DNA from: a virus
Direction: 5' to 3' (one strand)
Virus record (IMG/VR): IMGVR_UViG_3300031601_001918
Span: 1-31,382 of that record
DNA length: 31,382 nucleotides
Shown: in pieces, positions 1 to 31,193 of the stretch
Layout: each line of letters opens with the position of its first letter
Numbering within the stretch: the first letter of the stretch is position 1
Program-made: the position numbers and the translations under genes
The notes under the pieces: generated by a model
Databases searched by the model: none
What the model saw: only the letters and a program-made list of their open reading frames with translations
What the model was told of the DNA's origin: nothing

Positions 1-425
1 TGATAACCAATTATCTTTGGAAAGATAGTTAGTTCATTAGGTGGCATTCACTTAAACGTCACGGGTGTCATAGTCATTGATGTATAATCATTGAATATTT
101 GCCCCTCGAAAGGATTATAACTTAGTGGAATCATTGTAGACCCCATTTGAACCATATTTGAAATATACAATCTATGGATTCCAAGTATTTCTAATCTATC
201 ATTTTTTGGAATTCTGTATGTATTAAGAGTTCCGTCAAGGTGTTCGCCTTCGCCAATATTGATTGTGCATTTAAAAGGGAAGAACTTACTATATGTCATT
301 AGACTTTCTTGAAATACAACCCTCATCATTTCTTCTTCTGTTATTTCCATATCTTGTAGTACAGTACCAAGCATACGATTAATGTATCTTAGTACAGCTG
401 TAGGTGTTAAACCACTATAAGCCAT
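1..425 (-). CDS. Probable virion structural protein, C-terminus cut by window edge
   Basis: The gene starts at ATG 425 behind the Shine-Dalgarno AAAGGAGTGATG. The stop codon of the upstream transporter gene (TAG, 440-442) touches this ribosome site, so the two are probably translationally coupled. A TGA at 48-50 would end it at 125 aa; read as Trp126 the frame stays open to the window edge, giving at least 141 residues. The N-terminus is helical (AVLRYINRMLG, then EEEMMRVVFQESL) and is followed by a beta-rich part. That layout, and the PPNELTIFPK stretch after Trp126, remind me of neck or connector-type structural proteins of large myophages, but I cannot name a family. It is the second gene of the operon starting at 1687. 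Confidence 0.7.
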
Positions 426-439
426 ATCATCACTCCTTT

Positions 440-1687
440 CTAAATCTTACTATCTACTTCTGCTATAATTCCATCTTTATTTAAATCAACATTTATGAGA
501 TCTTCTATCATTTCATTGCTATATTTTCCCATAAGATATTTGTATATACTGCTAATTGTAGCAACGATTGGTGTTGCAATTATGAATCCTACAACTCCAA
601 ATAATGTTCCGAAAAATAATAGTCCACAGAATACTGACAGCGGATGTATATTTACTTCTTTACTCATAATAATAGGTTCTATTATAGTTTTTTGTAAATT
701 TTGCCCAATTAAATCTATAATTGCTAAAATTGATGCGAATATTAAAAATTGTTGTAATGATGTACTTGCTAATGCTATAAATGCCATTGGTAATATAATT
801 CCAATAGCTGGTCCAATGTATGGGACAAGATCTAACAATGCTATGATTCCACCAAATAACACACCATATAATATAGCCAACATTGGGTCTATTGGTCTAA
901 ATATAATTAGTGTAACTATAAATGATACTGAAAAGAATATAAATAAAAAGAATATTGATATTAATTTTCCTCGTATATATTTTTCAGTGCTTTTATTAGC
1001 AATACTTAACATTACTTCTGCGTCATCTCTATGCCATTTTGAAGGAATAACTTTGATGATTCCTGACATAATTGTATCTCCCTCTTTAAGAAAGAAGAAT
1101 AAAAATACAGGCATCATAATGATCATAATTAACCAATATAATGTTTTTAATACACCGTTTAAGGTTGCTGAAAAAGCATTAGTAAAAAAATCGCCAGAAC
1201 TAATTAATTGAACTGCATAATCTTTTAATAATGGAAGTTCTATAATTCCATCAACATTAGTTATTTGTGCTAATATATTTTCAGGAATAAAGTGCTGAAA
1301 TGCCGTTAAATTATTTAATATTACTGACCATTCGGTATCAATACGCCCAATTATATCGGTCACTTGTAATGTAACTAATAAAACGATTAAGCCTAGAAAT
1401 GCAAATAATACTATAAAAAATATTAAAATTGTTAGTATAGCAGCGCCAGCTTTTTTCATTTTCTTCTTAACTAAATAATTATTAAGAGGCCTAATTAAAT
1501 ACGCTATAAATAGTGCTAATGCTGCAGGAATAAATACTGACTGAACTGCGTCAAATACTCGACCTAAATAATCACCAAAGTTTAATTTTAGCAAATAAAC
1601 AATTACTAATAATAAAACAATTGAAGCCGAGGTGATCCCTACTTTTTTTCATTTCTCCGTTTTGTTAACTTCTTTCTTCTTTATCAT
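440..1687 (-). CDS. AI-2E family (TqsA/PerM-type) membrane transporter
   Basis: A 415-aa polytopic inner-membrane protein of the AI-2E transporter family (PF01594), whose members export or take up autoinducer-2 or act as cation/proton antiporters. Seen directly: several long hydrophobic helices, the family segment VPYIGPAIGIILP, and the C-terminal block EPIIMSKEVNIHPL followed by FFGTLFGVVGFIIATPIVA. The start at ATG 1687 is chosen because it has the ribosome site GAGGAGACGGAGAG. It requires TGA 1649-1651 to be read as Trp13, giving a cytoplasmic lead of KTEKWKKVGI before helix 1. Without that reading only a TTG start at 1594 remains, which loses much of helix 1. An AACA-N6-TA promoter lies at 1727-1738. 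A virion-type gene follows 14 bases downstream. A host-type gene here is unexpected; its substrate cannot be inferred. Confidence 0.93.
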
Positions 1688-1726
1688 TCTCTCCGTCTCC
1701 TCATGTGTTTCTCTTCATTTTAAATA

Positions 1727-1738
1727 TAATATATTGTT
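1727..1738 (-). promoter_or_regulatory. AACA-N6-TA promoter for transporter operon
   Basis: On the minus strand the sequence reads AACA-ATATAT-TA followed by TATTTAAAATG, 40 bases before the start at 1687. It is one of nine perfect copies of this element ahead of gene starts in the window and is back to back with the plus-strand copy at 1750. Confidence 0.65.
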
Positions 1739-1761: not shown

Positions 1762-1789
1762 TATGAAAATAAAAATAAGGAGTGATTTT

Positions 1790-2026
1790 ATGATATGGAA
1801 GAATGTTGAACGCCTTTTAGAGACAGGGAAACGAATAATAACTATCAACCCAGATGACGTAAAAAAAGGTATGGCAACAAAATCTAATAATAACGATGAA
1901 AAAAGAAAAGCCTTAAAAAATACAGACAACGCTTTAAATAAATTAACAAACCGAAGTGGCTATGCAAAAACTGAAACAGAACGCAGACAAAAGATGACTA
2001 ATTTTCAAAATAGGGGGAACAAATAA
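1790..2026 (+). CDS. Unknown small basic protein
   Basis: A 78-aa protein rich in Lys, Asn, Arg and Thr, with a short N-terminal helix (MIWKNVERLLETGKRI) and a hydrophilic, probably disordered remainder ending in FQNRGNK. ATG 1790 is preferred over the in-frame ATG at 1763 because AAGGAG lies at the right distance (1777-1782), and the earlier ATG overlaps the promoter. First gene of a three-gene plus-strand operon. Its TAA overlaps the next ATG by one base (TAATG), so the two are likely coupled. I recognise no family. Its size, charge and place beside the divergent promoter would suit a regulator or nucleic-acid-binding protein, but nothing in the sequence proves this. Confidence 0.75.
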   Translation: MIWKNVERLLETGKRIITINPDDVKKGMATKSNNNDEKRKALKNTDNALNKLTNRSGYAKTETERRQKMTNFQNRGNK

Positions 2027-2814
2027 TGAATATAGATAACGCATATGAATTAGCTCAAATGATTGAGCTTTATAGAGATGACAAAATTACAGCATACTCA
2101 CTTCAAAAAGAGCTAATGTTAGCTGCAAAGAAAGCAGTATTTACAGGTGCTTCAATTACAGTGGATATTGTAAGAAATGATGGTTCTGCAACGAACTCAA
2201 CATTTGGTGTAACAACTATTCCTCATATTGGCCAAACAGCATCTCTTAAAATCTTAATTGATAAAAATGCTATTGACAATGTTTTCAAACCAGAAGAAAT
2301 GGTTAAAGTATTTGTTGTAGAAGCAATGAATGCACAAAAAATATTAAAAGCATATTCTAAATTTAGCATAGAACATTCAAATGAAGATATTACGATTGCT
2401 GACACATTATCAGTGTTCTTAGAAATCTATGCAATTTCAATAGATGCATTTTACGAAAAATTACCAGCTTTAGCTGATAGACTTAAAGAAAATAAAGTAT
2501 ATCCTTGTAAAGATGATATAACTAAAGCATTAGAGCTTATTAATACTGGTGAAGAAAAAATAGAACATCTTATGGAAACTTTTGTTGTTAAGAATATTCT
2601 TCCTGCAGTGGTTATTAAAACTGCAAAAGATTTAGCAATTAAAATAAAAAAAGAATATAAAAACATTGAAACTTATAATGCAAATTATAATGATGAGTCT
2701 CCGAATCTTAATACATTCGAAAAACAAAGAAAAGCTATATCTGATGGAACATTCGATGAAAAAATTAAAGGTCAAGAAATTGACCCTAATTATAAACCTG
2801 AAACAAACCAATAA
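2026..2814 (+). CDS. Unknown 262-aa protein
   Basis: A soluble protein without signal peptide or membrane segment. It starts at ATG 2026, coupled to the gene before it, with AGGGGGAAC as ribosome site. The N-terminal part (about 1-130) has a helix pair and a short beta-type segment (ASITVDIVRNDGSATNSTFG), then KPEEMVKVFVVEAMNAQKIL. The rest is mainly helical with charged heptad-like stretches, and the tail is polar (DESPNLNTFEKQRK). No motif I know is present. As the largest gene of the small plus-strand operon it probably defines that operon's function, which remains open. It has no Trp codon of either kind. Confidence 0.8.
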   Translation: MNIDNAYELAQMIELYRDDKITAYSLQKELMLAAKKAVFTGASITVDIVRNDGSATNSTFGVTTIPHIGQTASLKILIDKNAIDNVFKPEEMVKVFVVEAMNAQKILKAYSKFSIEHSNEDITIADTLSVFLEIYAISIDAFYEKLPALADRLKENKVYPCKDDITKALELINTGEEKIEHLMETFVVKNILPAVVIKTAKDLAIKIKKEYKNIETYNANYNDESPNLNTFEKQRKAISDGTFDEKIKGQEIDPNYKPETNQ

Positions 2815-2825
2815 GGGGTGAAAAT

Positions 2826-3092
2826 ATGATTAATGAAAAGTTAGAAAGATTATTAGAGGCTACTTCTGGTATAAGACCAGGAATTGGTAGAAAACTTAAA
2901 CATATCAAAGTGCAAACACCTGAAAATGATAGTCCTGAACTAAAGAAAAAATTAGAAGAACTTGGTGTAAGGTTAGTAGACAAACCGAAAAAAAGAAAAC
3001 TTAAAAAACAATTAAAGCTAAAAAAGAAAGCTGAAATAAAAGATCTTAAAAAACAACTAAAAGTAATGAAAAAAACAAAAATAAAAAGATAA
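2826..3092 (+). CDS. Unknown Lys-rich protein
   Basis: An 88-aa protein with AAGGGGTGA as ribosome site 11 bases after the preceding stop. Residues 1-50 look like a folded helix-turn unit (ERLLEATSGIRPGIGRKL); residues 51-88 are a nearly continuous run of Lys with Leu, in repeats like KLKKQLKLKKKAEIKDLKKQ. Such tails bind nucleic acid or acidic proteins non-specifically. A mimic of a histone-like or packaging protein is possible, but this is inference. The TAA lies inside the 5' arm of the terminator hairpin. Confidence 0.75.
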   Translation: MINEKLERLLEATSGIRPGIGRKLKHIKVQTPENDSPELKKKLEELGVRLVDKPKKRKLKKQLKLKKKAEIKDLKKQLKVMKKTKIKR

Positions 3093-3854: not shown

Positions 3855-4286
3855 TTATCTACCTACCTTTGCTGACATATCAGATTTCTTAAATCTAAAT
3901 ACAAATTTCTTTACATAAATAACATCACGTTTAATCATTACCATTACTGGAACTCCGTAGTCTACACGAGTTGATTCAATATGATAAATAAGCCCAACAT
4001 TATTATCTGTTTCATTATATTTTTTCATTAAGACATCTAATGTGTTTCTAATGTCTCTTTCAGACATCATTTCACCAATTTTATCTCTTAATTTAAAGAG
4101 ATCACCTCGTAAATCTACTTGTTCTCTTGTGAATCTCATTAAGTCACGAGTCATCGTATTCTTAATTCTAGAATAAAAAATAGAGTTTTCTAATGTTGAT
4201 GGGCGAGCGTCTTCAACTTTGATAAACATTTCATGTAGTGTTTCTTGATCTTTTGATTTATCTATTTTAAATGTCATAAATGCCAT
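3855..4286 (-). CDS. Unknown protein, tandem paralogue B
   Basis: A 143-aa protein clearly related to the gene just upstream (4267-4794). Shared blocks are EMFIKV, ENSIFYSRIK, YHIESTRVDYGVPV and IKRDVIYVKKFVFRFKKS. At the column where the paralogue has TGA this protein has Met (GVPVMVMIKR). Start at ATG 4286 overlaps the paralogue's end by 20 bases; ATG 4277 is an alternative. Neither has a strong ribosome site, so translation by coupling is likely. Mixed helix-then-beta layout, no known domain. It lacks the ~30-residue C-terminal extension of the paralogue. Confidence 0.75.
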   Translation of the reverse strand: MAFMTFKIDKSKDQETLHEMFIKVEDARPSTLENSIFYSRIKNTMTRDLMRFTREQVDLRGDLFKLRDKIGEMMSERDIRNTLDVLMKKYNETDNNVGLIYHIESTRVDYGVPVMVMIKRDVIYVKKFVFRFKKSDMSAKVGR

Positions 4287-4794
4287 CTTTATCGTCCATT
4301 AATTTAAGATATCTAACTTTACGAGCGCCTTTAGCTTCTTCAACTAATCCACCTACGTTTACATCATTAAGTCCCATAGTTGCTGAAGATTTTCTAAATC
4401 TAAATATAAATTTTTTCATAAAAATTTCTGCACGTTTAATTACAACTCATACAGGAACTCCGTAATCATATCTAGTAACTTCAATATGATAGTCAATTGC
4501 TATATTATTATCTTTATTATTATACTTTTCTTTTAATGCATCTAAATACTCACGAATTTCAGTCTCAGATAGTTTTTCACCAACGTTTAATCTGAAAAGA
4601 TTTAAATCATCTTTCATTTCTTTATGAGTCATTTCTGAACTTTTCATAAAGAACCTTAGTATTTCTTGATGCAATAGAACCTTTAATTTAGGATAAAATA
4701 TTGAGTTTTCTATTTTAGTAGGTAGACTATCTCCTACATTAATAAACATTTCATTTAGTTTTTGTAAATCTTTTGCTTGTTCCTCTAAATACAT
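4267..4794 (-). CDS. Unknown protein, tandem paralogue A
   Basis: A 175-aa protein, continuous only if TGA 4447-4449 is Trp116. Ending it at TGA would cut the protein exactly where similarity to the downstream paralogue continues: beyond it the frame reads VVIKRAEIFMKKFIFRFRKS, matching VMIKRDVIYVKKFVFRFKKS. That is strong internal proof of sense coding. The C-terminus adds a Gly/Val/Lys-rich extension ending KLMDDKDGIYDI. Ribosome site GTTGGTGGAACT before ATG 4794. Function unknown; duplicated adjacent genes of this size in a late region are often virion components, but that is inference. Confidence 0.85.
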
Positions 4795-26822: not shown

Positions 26823-26846
26823 AGAAAGATCCAAAAGGATCTTTCT
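26823..26846 (-). terminator. Rho-independent terminator
   Basis: A 10-bp stem AGAAAGATCC / GGATCTTTCT with a 4-base loop, followed on the minus strand by a T-run. The TAG of the 523-aa gene (26845-26847) overlaps the stem. Confidence 0.88.
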
Positions 26847-28416
26847 ATATTAGATATGCTAAATCGATTAATTCATCAGCTATCTTACCAACTTTTACAG
26901 TTGAATCAAACAATTCGTCTCCAGCATCATCAGTAAATACTGATGCATATGTAGATGCGATAATTGCTGATAGTGGTTTCTTAACTTCTTCCGAGAAGCT
27001 ATTGTATTTCATATTAAATAATTGCATATACTTTTTACTATCTTGAATCATCGGACGGATTCTTTTTCCTGAAATATTAGTTCGTTCTTTATGTTTTTCA
27101 CAATGAGCTAATAATATTTGAGGTAGTAATTTGAATTGATGTTTCGCTAAATATTTTTCAACTGCTAATACTAAATATACATATTGAAAATATGACAAGA
27201 ATTTAACTGCCATTTTATCTTCAAAGTACTTAAACGTAAGCATCGTAATAATTTTCTCTTGAATACTATGACGATAGAATGTTTTAATTGCATTCTTAAC
27301 TTCATCATCAGTTACTTCAACACCGAAATATTCTGGAATTTTATTAAGTGTGTTTTGAATATTTAGTTTCCTAAGTGTATATAAACCTTCGTCTTTTCTA
27401 AGCATTCTGATTTCAAGACGTTCATATTCCGAAGTATCTTCGTCATCATCAGAATATTTTTCATGATTAGTTCCAAGAATAATAAATTTGTTTTTAAACT
27501 TATTTTGGAATAAAAAATTAATTTGGTTTATAATCACAGATTGAAAGAAGCTAATAAGGTTCTTATCAGGGTCTATCGATAATTTTGGAATTGCATTTGT
27601 TAATAATTTTTTATAAATCTCTAATGTCTCTGTATCTTTTGTAATTCCTTGATTCTTAGCAACAGCCCAGAATCTTTTGTCAGAATATACTGTCTTAGAT
27701 ACTCTGCTTAAGGTTAATTTATAAAGCTTGTTTCTAATTGCATCTGCATTCTCAGCAAATTTCTCAAATAAATAATTGAAAATTTCACTGTTAATTTCTC
27801 CGAATTTTAAATCTTCGAAGTCATCATTATCACGTTGATCTTCATTCTTAGCAAATGATGTTTTATTATAACTGAAATATACAGAAATAACAGGTATCAT
27901 AATTCTGAATAAATATGCAATCTTAATAAGTGTCTTTGCATGTGCATCTGAAAATTGTAATTCTTCGTTGATTTTATTCTTTTTGCTTTTTGTGTTTCTT
28001 GTACTCTCATCAAGTTTTAAACCATAATTTTCTCTTACAAATTCATCAATAGTTTGTATTAAAATTCCATCATTTGAATCAGTAATTACATCAATCATTT
28101 TTAGAAAATCATCATACGATGTTTCACCATCTTGAATTTCTAATGATGATTTAACACTTAATACATTAAATAAGATTATCGCAAGTTCTTCATTAAATCG
28201 TCCACCTTGATCAAGAAATATCTCTTGGTACGTCTCAATAATTGCAGGCACTAAATTTTTAAAATTTCGTTTAGAGTTCATTTCAAATAGGTTGTAAACT
28301 TCAAGTTCTTCTTTTCCAAAGATCTCGTCAAATGCAACACCAAATAAATTTCCTCCATCTTCTGAATAAAAATTCGGTTTAGTTTCTGTCTTCTCGATAT
28401 TAGTTTTGTTTGGCAC
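26845..28416 (-). CDS. Unknown 523-aa protein
   Basis: Start GTG 28416 is chosen because AGGAGGAATATTTA lies right before it; the longer frame would need a TTG inside a hairpin. Large, soluble, charged and mostly helical protein with Asp/Glu-rich loops (YSDDDEDTSEYERLEIRML). The C-terminal ~200 residues look like a compact helical domain (FGVEVTDDEVKNAIKTFYRH, FKYFEDKMAVKFLSYFQYVY). One TGG Trp. No ATPase, nuclease or metal motif is seen. Transcribed after the basic protein at 28494-29297 and before the primase unit. Confidence 0.8.
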   Translation of the reverse strand: MPNKTNIEKTETKPNFYSEDGGNLFGVAFDEIFGKEELEVYNLFEMNSKRNFKNLVPAIIETYQEIFLDQGGRFNEELAIILFNVLSVKSSLEIQDGETSYDDFLKMIDVITDSNDGILIQTIDEFVRENYGLKLDESTRNTKSKKNKINEELQFSDAHAKTLIKIAYLFRIMIPVISVYFSYNKTSFAKNEDQRDNDDFEDLKFGEINSEIFNYLFEKFAENADAIRNKLYKLTLSRVSKTVYSDKRFWAVAKNQGITKDTETLEIYKKLLTNAIPKLSIDPDKNLISFFQSVIINQINFLFQNKFKNKFIILGTNHEKYSDDDEDTSEYERLEIRMLRKDEGLYTLRKLNIQNTLNKIPEYFGVEVTDDEVKNAIKTFYRHSIQEKIITMLTFKYFEDKMAVKFLSYFQYVYLVLAVEKYLAKHQFKLLPQILLAHCEKHKERTNISGKRIRPMIQDSKKYMQLFNMKYNSFSEEVKKPLSAIIASTYASVFTDDAGDELFDSTVKVGKIADELIDLAYLI

Positions 28417-28444
28417 TAAATATTCCTCCTGTGCAATCGAAAGT

Positions 28445-28475
28445 ATAGAAAGAAACAATAAATGTTTCTTTCTAT
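28445..28475 (-). other. Perfect 13-bp hairpin upstream of 523-aa gene
   Basis: ATAGAAAGAAACA / TGTTTCTTTCTAT with a 5-base loop. On the minus strand no T-run follows, unlike every other hairpin here, and it lies about 30 bases before the GTG start. It may act as a 5'-leader structure, processing site or 3'-end stabiliser rather than a classical terminator. Confidence 0.6.
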
Positions 28476-29362: not shown

Positions 29363-29390
29363 AAATAAGAATCCAAAAGGATTCTTATTT
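29363..29390 (-). terminator. Terminator of chaperonin gene
   Basis: A 12-bp perfect stem AAATAAGAATCC / GGATTCTTATTT with a 4-base loop and a run of T on the minus strand. The chaperonin TAA (29385-29387) is inside the stem. Confidence 0.9.
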
Positions 29391-31193
29391 AATTTGATCA
29401 CTAACTGCAAAGTTCATTGTAATCATTTGATTAGATGTTGCCATAATACCAATGATTGAAACAACACTTTGTAGTATTTGAATATCTGTGTCAACCGAAT
29501 TTATAACTTCAGTCTTATCAATATCTTCGTATTTATGAGTTTTTAAATTATAGAATTTATTTTCATTCAAACATATGCTTAAAACTTCGTTAACTTTTTC
29601 TTCATTAAAATAACTATTACTTAAAACATGATAATAGCTTGCAACGAATGCATCTTTAACTAAGATTAAGAAATCTCTAATAAATATTTCTTTATCGAAC
29701 ACTGGAATATAATTATATTTTTCTACTAATTGACTTATTAATAGTGTGTCAGCTAAAGGTTTAGTTATTTCGTCTTCTAAAATTTTAGGAATCATGATGT
29801 TTCCACCAGGAATCACGCCATATTTAATTGCAGATTTTGAAGCTAGAATTGCATCTTCAAATAATCTTTCACGAGTTCTTCTTTCAGTTAAGCTCTTACC
29901 TGCAATATGAATAACCGCAGTTGAATCTGTAAGAGATGATAAACGTCTTTGAAGAATATATCTGTCAAATAATTCGTTGTTAGAAGGTTCTTCAAGTTCC
30001 ATATTTTTACGTAATGCTGTTGTAAGTTGTTTTACACATGCTTTTTTAGATTTAATATGTTTTACACTACGATCCATACCTAAAACTTGAGTTTTCTTTC
30101 TAGTTACAGTAATTGCAGCAGCTCTACCAACAAATCTATCTGGTGTTGCCATAATTTGAGCTGCATTATGTTCAAGTTTATCATATATTTCTGAGTCTAA
30201 TAAAATTGCAAGGTCTGCAAGTGTTGCTTTACTAGATTGAGTAACTTGGTCAATATCTACTACAGTAAATGGTAATTCAGCACGATTTCCTGCTAAATGT
30301 TGAGTTCTATTTAGTTTAAAGAATTTTCTTACATCTTCTTCATAATCGTTTGCAATGATAAGTAATTCAGCTTTTTCAGTTCCACATACTTGCCCAATAA
30401 GTGGAAGTAAAATATTTGAAATATCATCATAAATTAAAGTACCGTTTGTAATAAATACTCTAGGTTCTTGGTCCATAATTATTTTTTTATTCTCATAACC
30501 ATTAGCAAAGTATTCGTCAATATATCCTCTTTCTCATTCAATACCTTGGCGAATTTCATACTCATCTTCTTCTTTTTTTGCCATAATATCTGTAGATATA
30601 AATCCAAATTCTCCAATTTGGTCATAAATTTCTTTAATAAATTTACCAGTTTTTCTATCATTATTAGTTGCAATCATAGCAACTTTTTCAATTTCTTTTA
30701 GGTCTTTTGATATAGGCCTTGCCTGAGCTTTAAGTTCAAATTCTAAATATTTAGAGATATCTTTAAGAATATCTAAAACATCTTTTGGTGCAACTGTATC
30801 AAATATTTTTGAATCAGGAGCTGTAAGTTCGCTATATAATTCACTTGCAACTACTAATGCTGAAGTTGATCCGTCACCAACAGTATTTACTTGGTTACTT
30901 GCAACTGAACGAGCCATATCTAAAATAGTTCTTGGTAATTCTTCACTAAAATTAATTCGGTTTAATAAGTCATAGCCATCTTTAGTTGCAAAATGTTTTG
31001 ACATTTCTCTATCTTGTATAATAGTTGTGCTACCGTAAGGCCCAAGAGTACCACATAATATTTTTTCTATAACTTGTAATGTTGCTCTGATTTTGGCTTT
31101 TGTATTCTTTTCCTCTACAACATTTGTAAGGAAAGAAAAACCTATATTATTTTCTTTGCATATTTCATAATTTGTTTTATCTCGTAATTTCAT
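29385..31193 (-). CDS. Phage GroEL-type chaperonin, TGA read as Trp
   Basis: A 602-aa Hsp60/GroEL homologue, longer than E. coli GroEL (548 aa). ATP-site elements are present: CGTLGPYG (47-54), ATKDGYD with Asp72 (GroEL Asp52), VGDGSTSA with Asp107 (GroEL Asp87) and RERLFEDAI with Asp447 (GroEL Asp398), so it should hydrolyse ATP. The apical domain starts EIRQGIEWERGYIDEYF, equivalent to EGMQFDRGYLSPYF; the TGA at 30534 gives Trp220 where GroEL has Phe. Without this reading the apical domain is cut off. The Gly-Gly-Met tail is absent (ends AVSDQIK). Ribosome site AAAGGAGAGATAAA. Phage chaperonins are known in EL and OBP; no GroES gene is in this window. Likely substrate: phage virion proteins. 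Confidence 0.95.

What the first reader, a model, noticed from the sequence alone, without database searches (positions are those of the whole stretch)
440..1687. AI-2E family transporter in a phage late-type operon
A full-length polytopic host-type transporter sits behind the phage promoter element, uses the phage UGA-Trp code and is coupled to a virion-type gene. It is not an assembly junction: promoter, code and spacing match the phage. If it moves AI-2, the phage could change quorum signalling; if it is an ion antiporter, it could adjust membrane energetics late in infection.
Basis: partly seen in the sequence, partly recalled or inferred. Interest (0 to 1): 0.72.

Follow-up and report, generated by a model that had tools for sequence, protein, structure and literature searches.

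The report
Jumbo-phage late-operon AI-2E-family transporter
An uncultured giant phage related to Bacillus phages PBS1 and AR9 carries, under its own late-type promoter and next to a virion gene, a bacterial-type membrane transporter of the AI-2E family; it is a true resident phage gene, kept in the same slot by one diverged uncultured cousin, but what it transports is unknown.

Summary
Window 440-1687 (minus strand) is a complete 415-aa PF01594 (AI-2E) transporter (E=2e-41). Its single in-frame TGA (codon 13) aligns with tryptophan in a relative. It opens a late-type operon: AACA-N6-TA promoter, 40-nt leader, Shine-Dalgarno site, transporter, then 14 bp later a virion gene (AR9 gp111 homologue). 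The promoter matches the mapped AR9 late consensus, is enriched upstream of window genes (12 versus 1.6 expected), and the window encodes a homologue of AR9's promoter-specificity subunit gp226. A chimera is excluded: a diverged phage (TerL 61%, 55% GC) has a 40%-identical transporter in the same slot behind the same divergent promoters, and a second, near-identical contig has the same joins. A third relative keeps the promoters and virion gene but lacks the transporter; AR9, BpSp and LPJP1 lack it entirely. In a sparse tree the two phage proteins form one clade, sister to a Mycoplasmatota homologue. Quorum signalling is unsupported: the family name does not predict AI-2 export. The published Na+/H+ antiporter signature is only partly present. 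Best reading: a stably kept, probably late-expressed solute or ion transporter; substrate unknown. Late expression and transport are inferred, not shown.

The parts
440..1687 (-). AI-2E-family (PF01594) transporter gene, 415 aa, TGA=Trp at codon 13 (1651-1649)
   Evidence: Pfam E=2.1e-41; translation; homologue in L005 with W at the same place
1727..1738 (-). Late-type promoter AACAATATATTA; the last A (1727) is the predicted transcription start of the transporter operon
   Evidence: Match to AR9 late consensus AACA-6N-TA/G (PMC5312081); enrichment upstream of genes; conserved in L005 and L006
1750..1761 (+). Divergent late-type promoter AACAATTTATTA driving genes 1763-3092
1697..1702 (-). Shine-Dalgarno-like GAGGAG, 9 nt before the ATG of the transporter
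   Evidence: Read directly from the sequence
3..425 (-). Second gene of the operon: virion structural protein, AR9 gp111 homologue (cut by the window end; complete in L003)
   Evidence: PHROG_18911 E=3.7e-22; AR9 34%; full length in L003
26845..28458 (-). Homologue of the AR9 non-virion RNA polymerase promoter-specificity subunit gp226, the presumed reader of the late promoters
   Evidence: PDB 7s01_A E=5.4e-23; PHROG_25005 RNA polymerase

Best explanation
The gene is a resident phage gene: an AI-2E-superfamily inner-membrane transporter that an AR9/PBS1-like jumbo-phage lineage took from a cellular donor (the nearest cellular relative found is from Mycoplasmatota) before the window phage and the L005 phage diverged, and that other relatives never had or lost. 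It lies between a shared divergent late-type promoter and a virion gene. Supported by sequence: promoter matching the AR9 late consensus, leader, ribosome site, phage code, first gene of a two-gene operon, conserved slot in a second phage. Inferred: the phage's own RNA polymerase transcribes it late together with virion genes; the product inserts in the host membrane as an oligomer like TqsA; it moves a small solute or ion, helping the cell to stay energised or tolerate stress while particles are made. Charged residues kept in both phage proteins (D286, K333, E337, K241) hint at charge- or ion-coupled transport. The substrate is unknown.
For: Full-length Pfam match. Same slot, same divergent promoters and same downstream virion gene in L005 with a 40-41% identical protein. 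Promoter enrichment and published consensus; gp226 homologue. Codon use within the phage range, z=-1.39. Same joins in a second contig. Phage clade support 99/98, sister to MO-XQ 100/99. Protein intact and 40% conserved between two diverged phages, which points to a function under selection.
Against: No expression or transport data. Only two phages are known to have it. The slot is empty in L006 and the gene is absent from AR9, BpSp and LPJP1, so it is not essential to the group. The structure prediction failed, so the fold rests on sequence. The tree has only 14 rows. Residue mapping in distant alignments is uncertain, and E337 and K241 are also found in E. coli TqsA and YhhT.
Confidence: 0.6

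Rival explanations
1. It is a working AI-2 exporter of the TqsA type by which the phage changes AI-2 levels and so quorum signalling.
For: PF01594 membership; local similarity to TqsA; K241 and E337 shared with TqsA; a Lactobacillus member raised AI-2 secretion (PMC9134010).
Against: TqsA and YhhT form a separate supported pair far from the phage clade in the tree. The family contains other functions (PMC7221264). No AI-2 gene was seen next to it, and the host is unknown.
Confidence: 0.12
2. It is a Na+(Li+)/H+ antiporter of the UPF0118 group that adjusts membrane energetics late in infection.
For: D286 corresponds to the essential D251 and E337 to E296 of UPF0118; in 12 bacterial proteins compared the D is absent.
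Against: Essential R293 and S307 are T/I and H; R292 is K, a change that inactivates UPF0118; Q217 is K.
Confidence: 0.13
3. The fold has been re-used without true transport, for example as a late membrane-disturbing or lysis-timing protein, or as a membrane anchor for the neighbouring virion protein.
For: Late-type operon shared with a virion gene; phage membrane proteins made late are often lysis proteins (general knowledge).
Against: The whole PF01594 core is kept, with its conserved glycines and prolines, as expected for a working transporter; the virion gene lives without it in AR9 and L006.
Confidence: 0.1
4. It is host DNA joined to a phage contig by mis-assembly.
For: The gene is of host type, and the AI-2E hits opened in the phages collection are in unverified records, one clearly chromosomal.
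Against: Same slot in a diverged phage; same joins in a second contig with SNPs (perhaps a related sample); phage promoter, code and codon use.
Confidence: 0.02

Closest known systems
AI-2E / UPF0118 family (PF01594): E. coli TqsA, YhhT, PerM; Halobacillus UPF0118
   Same: Full-length family profile; conserved C-terminal core; several long hydrophobic stretches
   Different: Encoded by a phage behind a phage late-type promoter; about 13-24% identical to the bacterial members aligned other than MO-XQ; D286 and K333 absent from the bacterial proteins compared
Tenericutes bacterium MO-XQ plasmid protein AUD64147.1 (BK010_10800)
   Same: Closest cellular relative found, 31-32% over residues 4-384, shared loop insertions, sister in the tree
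   Different: On a bacterial plasmid among non-phage genes; lacks D286, K333, E337 and K241
Bacillus phages AR9/PBS1, BpSp (Takahashivirus) and Listeria phage LPJP1
   Same: TerL, sheath, tube, portal-like and gp111-type virion genes; late promoter consensus; gp226-type subunit
   Different: No AI-2E gene in the whole genomes of AR9, BpSp and LPJP1; in LPJP1 a head maturation protease gene stands upstream of the gp111 homologue

Membership tests
AI-2E family (PF01594) | Full-length match to the family profile above the curated cut-off | tested here: met
   142.6 bits against 34.3, positions 19-325 of 327
AI-2E family (PF01594) | Oligomeric inner-membrane fold as in TqsA (7nb6) | tested here: inconclusive
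   Sequence match to 7nb6 E=9e-7, but the AlphaFold model is poor, pLDDT 44.5
AI-2 exporters (TqsA function) | Exports AI-2 | not testable with these tools
   Needs an assay; host unknown
Na+/H+ Antiporter Group (UPF0118) | Signature E179-R182-K215-Q217-D251-R292-R293-E296-K298-S307 with the allowed exchanges | tested here: not met
   D251 and E296 kept; R292 is K, R293 is T/I, S307 is H, Q217 is K
AR9-like late transcription unit | AACA-6N-TA/G promoter upstream of the gene | tested here: met
   AACAATATATTA at 1738-1727 (-); enrichment; consensus
AR9-like late transcription unit | gp226-type promoter-specificity subunit in the same genome | tested here: met
   26845-28458, 7s01_A E=5e-23
AR9-like late transcription unit | Uracil-containing DNA and late timing of the transcript | not testable with these tools
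   Needs DNA chemistry and RNA data

The most novel reading that the evidence does not exclude
A phage-adapted branch of the AI-2E superfamily, with its own set of charged core residues (D286, K333, with E337 and K241), is made late under an AR9-type promoter to run ion-coupled transport that keeps or resets membrane potential or cell volume while a jumbo phage assembles: the first phage gene shown to use this transporter fold.
Probability: 0.25. Interest if true: 0.65.

Novelty: new member of a known kind. Interest (0 to 1): 0.47.

Why it matters
AI-2E transporters are very widespread in bacteria (13 of 14 control genomes have one) but poorly understood, and the paper searches found no report of one in a phage. 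A gene kept in the same late-operon slot by two diverged jumbo phages, and missing from a third with the same promoters, gives a natural comparison for what such a protein does during infection, and would add membrane transport to the late programme of AR9-like phages.

Tried and rejected
Host contamination or chimera: rejected. Other phages with the gene: the records opened from the phages collection (Listeria LM 4-14-1, Enterococcus Efs 1-1-1, Bacteriophage sp. MT836180) are marked unverified; MT836180 carries dnaE, psd and other chromosomal genes; the other hits were not opened. PHROG_24681 matches ordinary host-type AI-2E proteins, one far better than ours, so it is no sign of a phage family. 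More relatives: five further viral scans found no new carrier, one with an Enterococcus protein found nothing, a 14-row alignment was too diverse to scan with; the genome scan gave one 22% Elusimicrobia hit. Structure: AlphaFold with two sequences failed, so no fold search was run. Sampling donors by phylum was not possible because only genome handles are accepted as a centre. AR9 early promoter motif: no site in the window with fewer than two mismatches. Sample origin of the contigs: not found in the papers. Antisense ORF 495-1220 (+): taken as chance overlap.

Full report
Observation. ORF 440-1687 lies on the minus strand, 415 aa, with one TGA at codon 13. It matches PF01594 (AI-2E_transport) with E=2.1e-41 over nearly the whole model and E. 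coli TqsA (7nb6) by sequence (profile comparison, 95% probability over the C-terminal half); no NCBIfam equivalog passes its cut-off. Hydropathy shows several long hydrophobic stretches. The window is a 31,382-bp virus record.

The phage. TerL is 38-40% identical to the Bacillus jumbo phages BpSp, Goe21, PBS1 and AR9 and 33-36% to the Staphylococcus S6-like group; sheath, tube, portal-like and virion genes agree with AR9. The gene at 26845-28458 is a homologue of the AR9 nvRNAP promoter-specificity subunit (PDB 7s01_A, E=5e-23). A GroEL-like chaperonin lies at 29385-31193. TGA is read as Trp: 19 TGA and 34 TGG codons in the window genes, complete genes end in TAA or TAG only. In TerL, TGA codons 233, 276 and 316 fall on W in most relatives, while 98 and 563 fall on mixed residues. 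Relatives L004, L005 and L006 have no in-frame TGA in homologous segments, so among these phages the changed code is particular to the window lineage.

Promoter and operon. The AR9 late consensus is AACA-(6N)-TA/G with the last base as the start (PMC5312081); its template-strand form is given in PMC9209446. The 75-bp divergent space 1688-1762 holds AACAATATATTA on the minus strand, towards the transporter, with a leader of about 40 nt and a GAGGAG site, and AACAATTTATTA on the plus strand. Upstream of window genes the motif is found 12 times where 1.6 is expected, whereas over the whole window it is no commoner than chance, so the enrichment is specific to upstream regions. The transporter is followed 14 bp later by the virion gene (PHROG_18911; AR9 gp111, 34%), which in L003 ends before a hairpin with a T run (sequence). 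That the operon is transcribed late is inferred from the promoter, not shown.

Is it really a phage gene? Contig IMGVR_UViG_3300031645_000030 spans both joins, with 9 SNPs in 19,345 bp, one of them (synonymous) in the transporter. It may come from a related sample, so it gets limited weight. The stronger test is L005 (IMGVR_UViG_3300042363_001848; TerL 61%, 55% GC): a 389-aa homologue, 40-41% identical, in the same slot, behind AACAATAAATTA with a divergent AACAAGATATTA, and followed by the gp111 homologue (66%). L006 (TerL 52%) has the same divergent promoter pair, with the gp111 and 2026-2814 homologues on either side, but no transporter. L004 ends before the slot. Whole genomes of AR9, BpSp and LPJP1, and the 239-kb L007 record, have none. 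Gain or loss at one locus explains the pattern; which of the two is not settled. Codon use is within the phage range (z=-1.39; range -2.9 to 3.7).

Origin. In a 14-sequence tree the two phage proteins are one clade (99/98) with Tenericutes MO-XQ as sister (100/99), and they share loop insertions with it. Sampling is thin because broad searches of cellular genomes were not available, so the donor is a lead only.

Function. AI-2E is a family name, not a function: members include AI-2 exporters and Na+(Li+)/H+ antiporters (PMC7221264, PMC9134010). Of the residues needed in UPF0118 the phage proteins keep D251 (D286) and E296 (E337), carry K for R292, and lack R293, S307 and Q217. Membership of that antiporter group is therefore not met. 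D286 and K333 occur in both phage proteins and in none of the 12 bacterial proteins compared, while E337 and K241 also occur in TqsA and YhhT. I favour a late-made membrane transporter of an unknown small solute or ion, possibly charge-coupled, over quorum interference.

Novelty. Paper searches for AI-2E, TqsA or autoinducer-2 transport in phages gave no such report (openly licensed papers only). The gene is a new member of a known kind: a host-derived transporter carried by a phage.

Noticed in passing
26845-28458 (-): Homologue of AR9 gp226, the promoter-specificity subunit that needs uracil in the template strand; with the conserved promoter consensus it suggests that this UGA-Trp phage may also have uracil-containing DNA.
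   Followed up: partly
window and L003 versus L004, L005, L006: In-frame TGA (Trp) codons occur only in the window lineage; the nearest relatives have none, so the code change is recent in this phage group and points to a change of host.
   Followed up: partly
L005 14000-14120: The AACA-N6-TA divergent promoters are kept in a 55% GC phage, which suggests strong constraint on this promoter type.
   Followed up: partly
3855-4286 and 4267-4794 (-): Adjacent overlapping genes are paralogues (47% identity); L005 and L006 show one gene where the window has two.
   Followed up: no
126-268: Seven of the nine SNPs between the window and contig L003 cluster in the virion gene near the window end; strain mixture or local recombination.
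   Followed up: no
29385-31193 (-): Phage-type GroEL-like chaperonin (PHROG_5725 E=6e-99), well below cellular GroEL cut-offs.
   Followed up: no
440-1687, PHROG_24681: PHROG_24681 (unknown function) is matched best by an ordinary AI-2E protein from an unverified Enterococcus 'phage' record (E=2.5e-87); that PHROG may rest on host sequence.
   Followed up: partly
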